Below are positions 49,881 to 56,784 of a DNA stretch of 64,000 nucleotides, in pieces. The translations under genes and the position numbers were made by a program. The stretch lies in NCBI GenBank assembly GCA_010094045.1, contig ML986587.1:620001-684000 (forward strand). The letters are read 5' to 3'. The stretch comes from Lojkania enalia (lineage: Eukaryota; Ascomycota; Dothideomycetes; Pleosporales). The notes below the pieces were generated by a model. It saw only the letters and a list, made by a program, of their open reading frames with translations, searched no databases and was not told the origin of the DNA. Positions within the stretch are counted from its first letter, which is position 1; every line of letters starts with the position of its first letter.

Positions 49881-50700
49881 TGCCACATAACTTAATAAAA
49901 GTTTTAATACATCAAATAAACTTTGGTTATCTAGTCTAGTAGTATCCGGTCTTTCTCTAGGCGCCTAAGCTTTCTAGTGTGCTTTTGGATCTTACAAAAC
50001 TAAGTAAGAGTCTATCCGCTATTTAGCTAATATAGGTGACTATTTAGTGGCAAAAACGGCGCTTATAACACTAGTGAAGTCTGGAGAATTCGCCAGGCAA
50101 TATTTAAGAGGTATATGGAAAGTAGAAGCGTCAATTTCGGTTCCGGAGCCTGTGGTGAGCAAACCCACGATCAGATGTCCTATACTATACACCCCCCATT
50201 AACTTAAGCTCGGCAAGGAAGCGAATAGATGTATTTACCTTCTGTAGACGTAGATATATTAATTGTGAAGGTTGCTAGTTGTTCGTTAATCCTCGTATAT
50301 ACTAGTTTGGTGTATTTTATAAAATGCTCCTTCATTCTATAGGCAAACCCATGTGCTAGCATCGTAGTGACTTTAGCTTGTGCCGGTTAACCTTTCACTT
50401 AGAATCTCGTCTTAGGGCTGAGTCACCGAGCCCGATCCCACCGTCTAAGTCGTTGTTAAGGCTCACGATATTGCACAATTCGTAGAATAGGCTTATTATA
50501 CTTATAGATTATAGGCTGGTTCTATTTAGGGATCTTTTATAGGCTTTAAATTTATAAATTTCTCTAGTCAAAATATTGTAGATTGACATTTCTACTCCGT
50601 AGCTACTAGGTGCGGTAGAAGTCATGTTACTAGCAGGAATCTTAGGTTGCAGGTCAGCCCACTACGCTAAAACCTCGATTAATTTTTTTAGGCCAGCTCA
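49881..50700. other. AT-rich spacer, no gene recognised
   Basis: Degraded sequence between the cyclase relic and the many-intron element. Two imperfect copies of a GGTCAGCCCACTACGC / GGCCAGCTCACCATGC segment lie about 38 bp apart near 50653 and 50691. I identified no coding fragment. Confidence 0.45.
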
Positions 50701-50702
50701 CC

Positions 50703-52163
50703 ATGCAAACCCTCAGCCTACTAATGAAACTCACATCTTCATTTCACCTCGCCTCATTTTGTCTCTCACCAACCTGTTCACATCATGTGAACGCAACTAG
50801 AAGTAGGCGTAGAATACCACTTCACCCCGTTCTTGAGCTGTTCTAATAGCGTTTAGATTGCCTACAACGCATACTCAGACCTGGGTTGCTTACTATTTGG
50901 CTCCAAAAAATCTAATAAGGTAAAATTCGACCTATTTTAAACATATTCAGGACTAGAATAGACGAGTACATGTCTACTTAGGAGAGCTGTATTGCCCTGT
51001 GGACCTGGGATATAAGCTATGCGGAGTAAGTCTAAACGGATTCTCGACGAATTCTCAACATGCTTATATAGGGTTTACTATTATTTGAATTAATGCTAAC
51101 ATGTTTTGAACATTTTTAGAAGAAATTCAAGATCTGGGGAACCCTTATTACCCACACCCACAAATACCATGCACAACTGAAGGTTGCTACTGCTGAGTAG
51201 TCTAGGAACCCGTCTATAGAGAATATAGGAGATGCACGTCGTAAGTAGCCTTTAACAAGATCTCAATATGTTCTAATGGTATTTAGAGTTCTATTCGAGC
51301 ATATTTTGAGATATAATGAATTGTACACTGAAAAACAGTGTATAAACACGCTGGCAACATCTTTCGTTCTAGAAATGCCGCTACAGAAATCCCACCGCAA
51401 AGGCAAGCAAAAGGCTGTTCTAGACGCGTCCTTAACGGCTTTAGAACACGTTTAAAGCAAGTCTACATCAAAGCAGAAGGCGAACGTGTCCTCATCGGCT
51501 TCTCAACATGTTCGGCCTGAAAATGCAAGCAAAGATGAAAATTCTGTTATATGCTCGCAGCAAACAAAAAAATATGTAAAAAAAGGAGACATAAGTTATA
51601 TTTGTGGTGAGAGGCGAATCTCGTCTCAGGGAGGGAGATGAGGAACTGAACTGATTGATTGAGGATGGCCAGCGAGCCATATTTATGTGCATAGAAAAAG
51701 GGATATATTAGCTGATATCCAGCGTGATATCGAGCGTGAAATCGTACGACAATATCCGATACAACTCGGCAGACTTGCCAAAATCCCCTATCACAATATT
51801 TTTCTACACATGTTCATATGGTGTTAAAAAGGTGTTCAGAAGAACTACAACACAATGGTCCAGATGGTTAAGAAGGCAGGCGGTAAAATACCTTGCGCTG
51901 TCTGTGCTGCAAAGAAAAACAGATGTAAGCATATTCCGAACGCGTCCTTAACGTGCTTCGAACATGTTCAACTTGCATCTAGGATGCTTAGTGCCTTTTA
52001 AGCAACTCGCCGGTTTAGTTGATTCCAATTTAGTTAGTAGTCTGGTACACGTTTTAGACCATAGTTCCGATGAGTCTGAGCCAGAACATGGTGAGCCAGA
52101 GCAGCAGGTAGAGCATTAGCCAGGGCATGATAATAAGACTGGAGCGGAGTAATAATTATCTAA
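50703..52163 (+). pseudogene. Decayed multi-exon gene with zinc-finger-like CxxC motif
   Basis: A string of short open exons joined by intron-like gaps. Pieces include AYNAYSDLGCLLFGSKKSNK (about 50860-50920), RRVHVYLGELYCPVDLGYKL (about 50957-51025), KKFKIWGTLITHTHKYHAQL (from about 51119, followed by TAG where CAG is likely), MPLQKSHRKGKQKAVLDA (about 51374), GGKIPCAVCAAKKNRCKH (about 51880-51930) and an acidic tail with LDHSSDESEPEHGEPEQQ ending about 52163. The Cys spacing C-x2-C-x6-C is that of half a Zn2Cys6-type finger, so DNA binding is possible. Solo LTR copy B sits in one of the introns. I know no homologous family by name; it may be an accessory gene of the transposon. Confidence 0.4.
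51603..51795 (+). mobile_element. Solo LTR, copy B, with 5-bp target duplication
   Basis: This 193-bp unit is related to copy A at 43512-43714. It begins TGTGGTGAGAGGCG, ends CACA and is flanked by a perfect 5-bp duplication ATATT (51598-51602 and 51796-51800). It carries two of the 12-bp CGTGATATC-like units where copy A has three. It lies inside an intron-like gap of the plus-strand gene, so that insertion is younger than the gene. Confidence 0.8.
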
Positions 52164-52701
52164 ACACGCCGAGAACGTGTTTGCATAACGATTATGATTT
52201 ATTGGCTAGTGGGTTCTGAAGATGTTCTGAACACTTTCAATTTCGCAATTCTGGGTTTTCGGGTCTTAATGAGTTCTCAAATAGCTTTTAAAATGTTCCG
52301 AACATCTTGAATTCTCTGGTCAATACTTTTAGAGGCTCTTTATAGCCTTTAAGAAGCTAATCGGATGCTACTTAGAAGCTATTCTAAATATATTCAGATA
52401 CTTAATTTAAACGTTCTTCAAATTTCGCATATAAAAATTAGTTTAACTATTAACAATATTACTTAGTGTATACTTCTTTACTACTTTAAACTTTTTAATT
52501 TAGTAACGCCAAAAGATATCTACATAAAAATATAATATAATGATTAAAAGTAGCTTTAGATTTTTTTACTATATAAGGTTTAGTTAACTCCTAAAAGTTT
52601 GTGCACACAAAATTTATTATAATATTAATATGTTTACAATACAATTAAATATAGAATCTTATAGAGCGTTGAACGCAATATAAACAATATTTGCAACATG
52701 T

Positions 52702-55700
52702 TTATCTCTGTAATACTCTCTTTCTTTCTTCTAGTTCGATCTCAAGCTTTACATTTTCTAGCTCTTACTTTTTAATTTCAGCTTCTTTTACTCTTAATTC
52801 TAATAGAGCACGCTTACTTTGCAAGTCTATATTATTGTTAAGCGCTTAGCACTTAATAATTTCTACCTCTGGAGAAATAGTCCTAATAACATATTAGTGA
52901 AATGCTGTTAACGTGTTCAGAAGGCAATATACTTAGTAGAGCTTCTTTGAACTTGCGGTGACCTAATCCTAGATGCTGGGCGAGATCTTAAGGATCCTCT
53001 TAACGTAGATCTACTGCCTAGAGCGTGATTGAGCACTTATAACGCCTGAAGAAGATACTTAAAACAAAATTGCATCTTGAATAGCATTTATTAAAAAGCT
53101 AGATGTATTAGATGTTAGATGCTCTCCAGCATAGTGTTCTAAACACGTTAGTAGGACGTTACTAATATGTCAAGAATATATACGTACTATCTCGTGCTAA
53201 ATGGTTAATATACCATGCTGATAATGAGGTTGATCGAGATAAGTGCCGTACACCTAGTTCTTCTCGTACTTGGTGCTGGTCTATATCTCGCAAGTCCAGC
53301 TTTTATGCCCTAAACATATTAGCATTATGTTCCTAACATGTTGTGAAGGTTTTGTACATTTGGATAGTTGGTAATAGCGCTAAGTTGGTCCCATACGAGT
53401 TAGACCTATTCACGCTTTGTTCAACGGCATTTAAATTCTTGGATAATTTACCCCAATCATTAAATGGCATAAGTGAGCAGTACTTGTTTAACCCAGCTGC
53501 AATTACTGGGTTTTTTTTTATGTAAAGCCCAGCTTTTAACTGCTAGAATTTCATGTTCTTTATATAATGTTAGTAACGCCTTTGGAACAGGTTTAGAACA
53601 TAATAATACCTATAAGAAGATTGTATAAAGTCATATACTCTTCTAAGCTTTAACAAGTAAGAAGAGCTCGCATGTGATGATGTACAGAGTACTCTAACTC
53701 AAAATGTCCTCTACAGTTGTTGTAATACTTCTAGCAAAGTGATCTTGACAGATTATTACAGTATTTCGAAGTTGCCATTGCGATAGTCGCTGCTGGGGGT
53801 CAATTGATGAAAGATATCGGCCAAGACCTTGACAACATATTAATATTATAACAAGAAGGTAATGTTAAGACCCACCTCTCATTTGCTTGCTATCCATATC
53901 AATAGTTACTTCAATAAACCCCACTCCGTGAAGGTGCTTCCATTGAAACTCTTTTTCAATACATTGAGAAAGCGTTTCAAACAAAAGCTGAAAACACTTT
54001 TCATAAGCTCACCTTTTGTTAGAGTTAACAAGGATGCGAGCGAGAGTAACAGCTATAACGTGTTACCAACATGTTAAGATTAGTGATAGATTGCGTTTAC
54101 ATACGTTTTCCATGGTTTTCGTGGAATGCTGCAAAGATAAGCTCGTTAAAGCCATGAGAAACGCGCTTAAACGACAAATCTACTTGAAATATTTCTTGTT
54201 GGGCAAAACAATAAACCTGCCTTTTACAAAAGCAAATTGCAATTGTCCCAAGACTAAAAACACGAAGATTCTAAATGTGCGCCCAATATTTACATAAAAT
54301 CAAAATTTAAATACGTTAGAGATGTTAACATGCTGTTGATGATTCTTGATGGTTTTTTTCCACTCAAACTCCACTTCTGCAACATCTTGCCCATATGGAT
54401 AAGTAATAAGTTTCTCCTGGTATATAGCCTGAGAAAGGCGATCAAGATTTGCAAGGGGCGTGTGAATTTCAATGAAAGATGACTTCTGATGCTTTCGACA
54501 GAACTTATCTAAGAAAGGATTCCGTAAGAACTTGGCTAGATTAATAACACGTTAACAAGGTCTTATAAACTAAACGTACCAGTTGCGAGACTTGGATCAT
54601 TCATTCTTCGAATTAGGTCAACTATTTCTTCAGCAACCTTTTGAGGGGTCTTGTGTGGAGGTGGAGGGAAATGCGTATGCACGCCGTGCGACGTAAAAAG
54701 GTAGTGAGGAGTTTCCGCTAAGTCATTAGGAATAAGAATGTCAAAAGTAACGTTACACTCTTGGTGAATTAAACACCCTCATCCTTGTGGGTGATAAACG
54801 TCTTAAGAAGTGGATTAGAACATAACGGAAACGTGTTCTAGACATGTTGACGTACCACAGTGTTTGAATCATGATAGTGTTGTCTCTATAGTACTACACG
54901 ATTCTGGCTGCTCTTGCTGTTGTTCTAGTCCACTTTCAAAGAGCTTTTGAAGATACAATACGTTGTATTTATCTCCAAGAGTTCTAAAAAAGTGCTTTTG
55001 GTTTTGATTGTGCCAACTCCATCCTGCACAACCAATATACCAAAGTCGAACTCTAGTTATAGTCTAGAATGTGTTAGCAACATGTTAAGACGAGTATAGT
55101 AAGGTGTTAAGAACTACTTCTCGGCTCATTTGGCGCTCTACTGGCGCGCATTGTGCAGTTTGATTTGGGCATGCAATGCCAGCTTAAAAACAGTGAGCTG
55201 TAGCTAAGTACGAGCTAAAATAGTTAAAAATAGCTCTTACACAACTGTATATAACTTACCTAGTTGAGTTTTTTTTTGCTTATCTGGTTCACTTCTATCA
55301 ATACCCTGCCGAGCATGTCGCATCTCCTCCCATGTCTCTGCGTTGACATGATGATGGGAATGCGTTGCTAACGCGTTGTTTAAATATTCACAACGTTTTA
55401 CCCCTGTACATTGGTATCGGTGTCGAACCGCAGATCCTCCAAGGAACGGACAACTTGTAGGCTTAGATGGGCCTTTTTGGCGCCGACAGAATTGGAACTG
55501 AACACGTTACTAAAACGTTAATAACTTTATATAGTGTTTATACCTGTAGTGCATTATCCAGCACTTCTGCTTTTGTAGCGGTATTGCTTTGTTTCACGCA
55601 ATAAGTGCACCCATTTCCTAATGTTCTTGGGTATTCAGGCAAAAGCAATACGTGCTTAATTATACCGGTAGTAAGAGGACGGGTTGTCCCAGAAGTAAGC

Positions 55701-56160
55701 AACGAAATTTCAGATGTTTCCTATAACAAGTTAGGAACGTATTAAAATCGTGATGAGCACATGTTACATAATTTAACTTCCTCGTTTTATTCGCCTTCCA
55801 CCCCAGATTCAATACTAGGCATAGGCCTATCCTCAAGCTCTAAAGTTGCATATTCTGCCTCGCTATTGTACGCGGATTCTGTGTTGTCTAAACGGCCCAG
55901 CAGCGGCTGAGCGAGGTTTAAAGAGTCTACAATAGTAAGAACATGTTTACAAAGTGTTAACGTAATTACTCATGTTTGTGCGGTAAAATCATGTAAATTG
56001 TGAACAGGAAGACAAAGTGCAGGGTTTTCTAAAGTTGGGGCTAAAATATGAAACAACCAACAAAGTTGTTGGGCCACCAATTGGCAGGGGTCTGCATTAG
56101 CGTTAGTAATGGCCCGGGGTTTAGTATGGTTGGCCGACGTGTAGTCTCGGAATCCATGAG
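52702..56160 (-). pseudogene. Decayed many-intron transposase-like gene
   Basis: Read right to left, open exons join in phase: 55926-55768, 55720-55544, 55497-55260, a short exon near 55140, 55063-54856, 54801-54580, 54535-54330, 54270-54105, 54052-53876, from 53827, then pieces down to a coiled-coil end at 52702. Motifs include a Cys-rich N-terminal region (FQFCRRQKGPSKPTSCPF, ACPNQTAQC), LFTSHGVHTHFPPPPHKTPQ, EKLITYPYGQDV, FQVDLSFKRVSHGFNELIF (like the first catalytic Asp strand of MULE-type transposases), RGLGRYLSSIDPQQRLSQW and NLNAVEQSVNRSNSYG. The VHTHFPPPP and DLSFKR patterns are those of a fungal transposase group I remember from database proteins, so the family name is tentative. Stops are of the CAA-to-TAA or CGA-to-TGA kind; an A9 run near 53517 shifts frame. 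The first exon join (about 56160-55970) is unresolved. Confidence 0.65.
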
Positions 56161-56200
56161 GTTAAGATGTTTTTAGGGGTTTGAACGGAAGGAATAAACT

Positions 56201-56784
56201 AGAAGATCAAGACTAGAATGGAGGAAGAGAAACAGTGCACTGTATATAGTTAATTGAGCCAAAAATTCGTAGGCCGCCGTCGCCAATTAAGCAAACCGCG
56301 TAGTGATGGAGCTCGTACTGAGCGTATTGGTGTCGTTTCGGCTACACAACGGGTACTAGTCCGCCCTATGCTGCACTCATCCAAGACCACTCTGGGGTCC
56401 CACAAATTGGCAAAAAAGAGGCAAAAAGAACATACGACAGTGGGGATTCGCTGATTGTCACCAACTCAACTACTAATCCACCGGTCAACTCCTTCAGTAC
56501 CGGAGAGCGGACGGGAACCGCTGTTCAAAGCTGCCTATGGTCGTATGTGGAAAAAACTGATGTGTATGAATAACTTGTAGATAGAAAAAAAAAAGTGTTT
56601 CCCGAGACTTTATGAGTAAGACAAAGTTTTGTGGTTCGCAGTGCACTCTCTCTGGAATGCACTAGTCTAAATTTGGCACAGATCTTGGCACGACTTATCG
56701 ATTCTGAAATTTGGGAGCTTGTACGAATTTCAAGTGTACACCACACAACCTTTACAACGCGAATTTGCGGAAAAATTAGTCAAG
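56201..56784. other. Right edge of AT-rich island / UTP11 promoter side
   Basis: Sequence between the many-intron element and UTP11. Composition returns toward normal. No gene was recognised. An A10 run lies at 56584-56593. The right part should hold the UTP11 promoter. Confidence 0.5.

What the first reader, a model, noticed from the sequence alone, without database searches (positions are those of the whole stretch)
50700..56200. Introns sharing a conserved 3' end across a two-gene transposon: introner-like elements?
At least nine 43-54-bp introns on the minus strand end in variants of CTAAYRYGTT-TAG (for example GCTAACACATTCTAG, GGTAACACGTTATAG, TACTAACGTGTTTAG, GCTAATATGTTTAG). Many also carry AACATGTT/AACGTGTT just before. 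Gaps in the convergent plus-strand gene carry related text (AACATGTTC, GAACACGTT, with CGCGTCCTTAACG at three 5' ends). Unrelated introns should not resemble each other this way. Either introns spread by copying, or the element's own protein recognises the palindromic motif many times along its length.
Basis: partly seen in the sequence, partly recalled or inferred. Interest (0 to 1): 0.75.

Follow-up and report, generated by a model that had tools for sequence, protein, structure and literature searches.

The report
Phased binding-site arrays inside transposon introns
In a fungal jumping gene, most of its tiny introns carry an evenly spaced row of the same 8-letter palindrome, most likely a docking site by which one of the element's own proteins recognises it along its whole length.

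Summary
Window 50644-56157 holds a decayed MULE-like transposon of a 58-Mb fungal genome: a minus-strand transposase gene with 12 short introns placed by homology, convergent with a small plus-strand zinc-finger-like gene. The shared motif is an 8-bp palindrome, AACRYGTT, recurring at exactly 11 bp, about one DNA helical turn (lags 11, 22, 33). The element has 23 three-site arrays, against 0 in 58 kb of other window sequence and 0.1 after shuffling. Five diverged relatives share most intron positions and phases, but the intron sequences no longer align; yet across all six loci 42 of 48 introns have a significant 11-bp array, against 3-5 of 48 at four neighbouring spacings. Introns of one element resemble each other no more than introns of different elements. 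The last site often overlaps the putative branch point. Arrays also lie outside the transposase gene; tests for RNA pairing and folding were negative. Best explanation: DNA binding sites for an element-encoded protein, kept in whatever is non-coding, working like the VANC motif arrays of Arabidopsis VANDALs but in a fungus, in short introns and in strict helical register. Which protein binds, and why, is untested.

The parts
50644..50682 (+). left terminal sequence, similar to both ends of the C89 relative and to both C72 ends
   Evidence: p 0.005, 0.005, 0.005 and 0.010; 200 shuffles each
56121..56156 (-). right terminal sequence, similar to the C89 left end only (1 of 4 ends tried)
   Evidence: p 0.005; direct left/right alignment within this copy not significant; no target-site duplication found
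52700..55910 (-). decayed MULE-like transposase gene, 12 introns by homology; the relatives end in a stretch predicted as one long helix
   Evidence: (P0001 guide: 9 stops, 4 frameshifts)
55498..55543 (-). intron at protein position 110, array score 20/24
55215..55259 (-). intron 190, no significant array; boundaries differ between guides
   Evidence: p 0.478
55064..55117 (-). intron 222, array 18/24; acceptor differs between guides
54802..54855 (-). intron 292, array 20/24
54536..54579 (-). intron 366, array 17/24
54271..54314 (-). intron about 437, no significant array; acceptor differs between guides
   Evidence: p 0.10
54053..54104 (-). intron 493, array 18/24 with AACATGTT-GGT-AACACGTT
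53828..53875 (-). intron 552, array 15/24
   Evidence: p 0.005
53558..53609 (-). intron 625, array 20/24
53310..53357 (-). intron 691, array 21/24
53139..53187 (-). intron 732, array 20/24
52883..52932 (-). intron 802, array 20/24; acceptor differs between guides
55736..55765 (.). array 20/24 in a possible further intron (about 55716-55762, by eye)
55929..55958 (.). array 19/24 between the start of protein homology and the right terminus
51108..51236 (+). second gene: conserved stretch with C2H2-like finger half
   Evidence: C72 E 2.6e-9, C89 E 0.002; zf-C2H2 E 0.0044 on a typed join with the preceding piece, below cut-off
51822..51941 (+). second gene: conserved piece with CX2CX6C cysteines (Zn2Cys6-like by eye)
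   Evidence: C72 E 2.6e-9; no Pfam match
51026..51071 (+). candidate second-gene intron with array 18/24
   Evidence: the scan required an array
51241..51286 (+). candidate second-gene intron with array 18/24
   Evidence: the scan required an array
51925..51982 (+). candidate second-gene intron with array 22/24
   Evidence: the scan required an array
51423..51512 (.). two arrays, 51423-51452 and 51483-51512 (20/24 each)
52163..52308 (.). three arrays (18-19/24) between the conserved parts of the two genes
51602..51799 (.). unrelated dispersed repeat lying inside the element, 41 further matches listed in the genome

Best explanation
This is a decayed two-gene MULE-like DNA transposon of a fungus, probably of the Pleosporales. 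Its non-coding DNA (most transposase introns, the flanks, the second-gene region) carries arrays of an 8-bp palindrome, AACRYGTT, in 11-bp helical register, which I take to be binding sites for an element-encoded DNA-binding protein: the transposase's own zinc-finger-like part or the small zinc-finger-like protein of the second gene. Introns are used because they tolerate non-coding sequence inside the coding region; the last site often doubles as the putative branch point. Shown: element, introns by homology, motif, phasing, near-confinement of three-site arrays to this family, persistence after the introns stopped aligning. Inferred: protein binding, selection, and the purpose, either sequence-specific self-recognition against silencing (VANC-like, my first choice at about 0.4) or coating of the element for transposition or regulation (about 0.3).
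For: Lags 11/22/33; 23 arrays in the element, 0 in 58.3 kb of other window sequence, 0.1 in 20 shuffles, 0 in 40.4 kb of ten other loci. With no motif assumed, intron bases match at lag 11 (0.407) and 22 (0.377) against 0.23-0.30 at the other lags from 5 to 29. 42 of 48 introns significant at lag 11; 4, 5, 3 and 5 of 48 at lags 9, 10, 12, 13. Five elements: sites of 7/8 or better 27.4 per kb in introns, 9.6 outside the gene, 3.4 in exons; arrays 34 intron, 40 outside, 12 exon. Genome-wide the 3-site pattern (up to 3 mismatches) has 12 matches forming 10 distinct arrays, its reversed control 1; spacers of 2 or 4 give 0 (their reversed controls 1 and 2). Nine of the 12 matches are in four transposase-bearing loci; a motif-only hit (C16:394436) proved to lie by a transposase fragment not listed by the protein search. 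Adjacent sites pair as RNA no better than shuffled partners (5.922 v 5.911 of 8).
Against: No binding, expression or splicing data. 7 of 51 introns have p over 0.05. 12 arrays fall in sequence classed as exon; introns longer than 70 nt or not mapped are counted there. The second protein rests on reading by eye and sub-threshold Pfam matches to 2 of 3 finger pieces; the MULE match is one protein at E 0.089. Adjacent spacers are slightly more alike than chance (0.90 v 0.77 of 3; 0.034 of shuffles reach it), a hint of tandem duplication. Neighbouring sites are not homogenised (5.032 v 5.019 of 8), unlike VANDAL repeats.
Confidence: 0.7

Rival explanations
1. Introner-like elements: the introns are copies of a short mobile intron that spread through the element.
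For: Many introns share motif-rich 3' ends; introner-like elements are known in Dothideomycetes (PMC4457414, abstract and passages).
Against: 37 of 54 introns at positions and phases shared exactly by three or more loci; no within-element excess similarity; arrays also outside introns.
Confidence: 0.05
2. RNA-level element: the palindromes form hairpins or bind a splicing factor and so aid or regulate splicing.
For: The last site often overlaps the putative branch point: in 22 of 50 introns the 8-mer at the last TAAY scores 6/8 or more; 11 of 50 have no such TAAY. Sites are densest in introns.
Against: No pairing preference between adjacent sites; intron RNA folding z -0.28 on average, 8% below -2; 40 of 86 arrays lie outside the transposase gene; 11-bp register points to the DNA helix.
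Confidence: 0.12
3. Sites for a host DNA-binding protein or for nucleosome phasing: the element exploits a host factor rather than its own protein.
For: 11-bp register; introns fairly evenly spaced, median 250 bp.
Against: The 3-site pattern is almost confined to this family in 58 Mb; of 35 intron-like strings elsewhere 0 reach 17/24.
Confidence: 0.15
4. Relic of tandem duplication of an 11-bp unit without present function.
For: Slight spacer similarity.
Against: Adjacent sites are not more alike than random pairs; the site columns are kept while the spacer columns are near random; arrays persist in relatives whose introns no longer align.
Confidence: 0.05

Closest known systems
VANDAL elements and VANC anti-silencing proteins, Arabidopsis (PMC5735166, PMC10398659; passages read)
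   Same: Short motif dense in the element's non-coding parts including introns, intergenic and terminal regions, rare in coding parts and in other transposons; arrays of sites
   Different: Motif YAGTATTAY arrayed in one orientation, in tandem repeats that evolve together; here an 8-bp palindrome at strict 11 bp, sites not homogenised, in most of the roughly 50-bp introns of the transposase gene; no VANC homologue was sought
Two-ORF MULEs: Mutyl of Ascomycota (second ORF MutB in antisense) and Spectre (C2H2 ORF plus transposase), PMC6446971 (passages)
   Same: Transposase plus a second ORF, zinc finger, terminal inverted repeats (22 bp in Mutyl)
   Different: No dispersed phased motif is described in the passages read
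Fungal introner-like elements (PMC4457414; abstract and passages)
   Same: Introns sharing sequence within Dothideomycetes
   Different: Those are newly gained introns that share sequence; these sit at shared positions and share only the phased motif
Spm/En TnpA and Ac subterminal motifs, MetJ met boxes (recalled, no call)
   Same: Repeated short sites bound by an element's or regulator's own protein
   Different: Recalled as confined to ends or operators, not spread through introns

Membership tests
MULE transposons | DDE/RNase-H transposase of MULE type | tested here: inconclusive
MULE transposons | terminal inverted repeats | tested here: inconclusive
   short ends above shuffles in C89 (41 v maximum 35) and C72 (44 v 33), not in C10 (35 v 37), C16 (39 v 48) or C58 (29 v 45); ends like those of C89 and C72 found at both sides of C10
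MULE transposons | 8-11-bp target-site duplication | tested here: inconclusive
   none in C10, C72, C89; one 9-mer with a mismatch in C26; tips uncertain
Introner-like elements | introns similar along their length through copying | tested here: not met
Introner-like elements | recent gain at new positions | tested here: not met
   37 of 54 introns share exact position and phase with at least two other loci; no outgroup DNA was available
VANC-type self-recognition | short motif dense in the element's non-coding DNA and rare elsewhere | tested here: met
VANC-type self-recognition | motif copies evolve together by tandem repetition | tested here: not met
   adjacent sites no more alike than shuffled; spacers slightly so
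VANC-type self-recognition | an element protein binds the motif and removes silencing marks | not testable with these tools
   needs binding and chromatin experiments

The most novel reading that the evidence does not exclude
A fungal transposon family independently evolved a self-recognition code that is nearly unique in its genome: helically phased palindrome arrays kept in most of its many short introns, where the last site doubles as the branch point, so that one of its own proteins can mark the element along its whole length, including the coding part, and counter silencing.
Probability: 0.35. Interest if true: 0.88.

Novelty: new variant of a known kind. Interest (0 to 1): 0.74.

Why it matters
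If right, introns here are kept as carriers of protein-binding sites: a concrete, testable reason why a mobile gene has about a dozen tiny introns. It would give fungi a counterpart of plant VANC anti-silencing and a DNA-binding specificity nearly confined to one transposon family in 58 Mb. It also shows how shared intron ends can mimic introner spread when the real cause is a repeated binding site.

Tried and rejected
Introner copying: rejected on intron positions and similarity. RNA hairpins: no pairing preference, no folding excess; no Rfam match in 50600-56300. Spacer controls of 2 and 4: no match genome-wide, their reversed controls 1 and 2. Pfam and NCBIfam: nothing above cut-off for the element's pieces or the relatives. 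First structure model too poor (pLDDT 37.8); second 57.1, Foldseek not significant. PDB by sequence: chance-level rows only, kinesins first. Searches for relatives with flanking DNA in viral, bacterial/archaeal genome and plasmid collections found none, so arrays could not be checked in other species. Target-site duplications: none convincing. End comparison: 8 of 16 pairings reached p below 0.06, the others were not printed. Tandem Repeats Finder gives only 4 weak rows, three with period 11. Paper searches 'transposon, anti-silencing, fungal, transposase, introns' and 'Mutator-like element, Pleosporales, introns' returned 0 papers; four broader listings showed no title of this kind. The host-intron control is only 35 intron-like strings, not annotated host introns.

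Full report
What is there. A query built from exon translations of the minus-strand gene found 5 proteins, of Bimuria, Pleomassaria and Lindgomyces, 47-52% identical over 51-99% of the query; profile searches brought the list to 14. The six named species are all Pleosporales; two proteins (P0007, P0014) have no organism. The host is therefore probably of that order; this was not tested directly. P0007 (854 aa from a 2775-base contig) leaves about 210 bases beside the coding sequence, too few for a dozen introns, and may come from a transcript; its source is not documented.

Gene structure. Spliced alignment to P0001 (879 aa) and P0002 (859 aa), given only splice dinucleotides, a donor score and the protein, places 12 introns of 44-54 bp (P0001 guide), with 9 stops and 4 frameshifts; with P0002, 7 stops and 9 frameshifts, and four introns get other boundaries. 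The copy is therefore decayed. Terminal sequences at 50644-50682 resemble both ends of the C89 and C72 relatives, and 56121-56156 resembles the C89 left end (1 of 4 ends tried), which bounds the element at about 50644-56157. Left and right ends of this copy alone do not align significantly.

The motif. AACRYGTT occurs 23 times in the window, 17 within 51098-55940. Sites matching 6 of 8 or more in 51050-55990 recur at lags 11 (36 pairs), 22 (20) and 33 (15); shuffles give 1.1-1.4 and the other lags from 8 to 44 show 0-7. There are 23 non-overlapping three-site arrays of score 18/24 or more, against 0 in 58.3 kb of other window sequence and 0.1 on average in 20 shuffles, and 0 in 40.4 kb of ten other loci. 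Without any motif, bases in the mapped introns match at lag 11 in 40.7% and lag 22 in 37.7%, against 23-30% at the other lags from 5 to 29.

Relatives. Protein searches of the genome give loci on contigs 72, 89, 16, 58 and 13; their candidate lists are capped, so there may be more. Spliced alignment of each to the same guide protein gives 54 introns with this copy's 12, of which 37 sit at a position and phase shared exactly by three to five of the six loci (positions 110, 190, 222, 292, 366, 433, 493, 552, 625, 691); the other 17 are shifted, in another phase or unique, mostly after position 690. In each of C72, C89, C16, C58 and C13 lags 11 and 22 are the top two. Three introns longer than 70 nt were dropped; of the other 51, 44 have p at or below 0.05 for a three-site array. 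Of the 48 of 45 nt or more, 42 have p at or below 0.025 at lag 11, against 4, 5, 3 and 5 at lags 9, 10, 12 and 13. Exceptions: C10 190 and 437, C89 183 and 281, C16 493 and 718, C13 226.

Not copies. Mean similarity z: same element, different position 1.24 (223 pairs); different element, same position within 12 residues 1.30 (82); different element and position 1.19 (970). For the 5' part the means are 0.20, 0.11 and 0.28. So introns at the same position are no more alike than any others, and introns within an element are not copies of each other; what they share is the array.

Where arrays lie. In five elements (C10, C72, C89, C16, C58; bounds of C16 and C58 set by hand), sites of 7/8 or better: 59 of 2156 intron positions (27.4 per kb), 79 of 8240 outside the transposase gene (9.6), 39 of 11428 exon positions (3.4); arrays 34, 40 and 12. 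Window background is 1.1 per kb. For this copy an earlier count gave 37.9 per kb in introns, but used two further intron-like segments placed by eye, one of which now looks like upstream sequence. Introns are fairly evenly spaced, median 250 bp over 44 distances.

Specificity. The three-site pattern with up to 3 mismatches has 12 matches in the genome, 10 distinct arrays since two pairs overlap, and 1 match for the reversed control; spacers of 2 or 4 give none, their reversed controls 1 and 2. Nine of the 12 are in loci C10, C16, C58 and C72. Of the other three, C16:394436 lies by a transposase N-terminal fragment that the protein search had not listed (tblastn E 1.9e-5 to 6.5e-4); C26:85866 lies in a small element with inverted stretches of 46 and 31 bp at 91 and 97% identity; C331:19119 has weakly similar end sequence. 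Close pairs are less specific: of 26 places with two exact sites within 25 bp (reversed control 8), 5 have spacer 3, four of them in family loci, and 15 belong to another repeat with spacer 4. Intron-like strings outside the elements: 0 of 35 reach 17/24, against 36 of 48 mapped introns.

DNA or RNA. If the palindromes worked as RNA hairpins, adjacent sites should complement each other's variable centre; they do so no better than shuffled partners (5.922 v 5.911 of 8), and intron RNA folding is ordinary (z -0.28). The 11-bp step is close to a helical turn, so sites face the same side of the DNA. Adjacent sites are not more alike than random pairs, so I infer that each site is kept by selection rather than by recent duplication; a slight spacer similarity leaves some room for duplication.

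Candidate binders. Conserved C and H-x-H patterns in the transposase look to me like WRKY/FAR1-type fingers (by eye; no profile match). The second gene is conserved in C72 (E 2.6e-9) and C89 (E 0.002), perhaps C58 (E 0.017 to C72); its finger half matches zf-C2H2 families below cut-off in this copy (E 0.0044) and C72 (E 0.05), not in C58, and a CX2CX6C piece that I read as Zn2Cys6-like has no Pfam match. Three of its candidate introns carry arrays, but the scan that found them required an array.

Noticed in passing
window 51602-51799: A dispersed repeat of about 190 bp sits inside the element; the search listed 41 other matches (40 at 86-95% identity, one at 82%) and says such counts are lower bounds.
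   Followed up: no
G000 contigs 12, 15, 31, 77, 80, 138, 139, 160, 177, 219, 236, 259, 326: A separate repeat with two AACRYGTT sites at spacer 4 (mostly AACGCGTTTTTTAACGTGTT) accounts for 15 of 26 close site pairs in the genome; relation to this family unknown.
   Followed up: no
L027 5554-6310 (C26): Short element with inverted ends that hold tRNA-like text by eye, three arrays inside, and a roughly 100-bp repeat with 46 further matches listed.
   Followed up: partly
mapped introns of five elements: Intron centres are about 250 bp apart (quartiles 230 and 270, 44 distances), so arrays recur at near-regular steps along the transposase gene.
   Followed up: no
window 50644-56157: The variable centre RY spans GC, GT, AC and AT (9, 14, 12 and 19 of 54 exact sites in six loci) and many weaker sites differ by C to T or G to A; six of nine stops are TAA and three TGA, three TAA standing opposite Gln of P0001, as decay by deamination would give.
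   Followed up: partly
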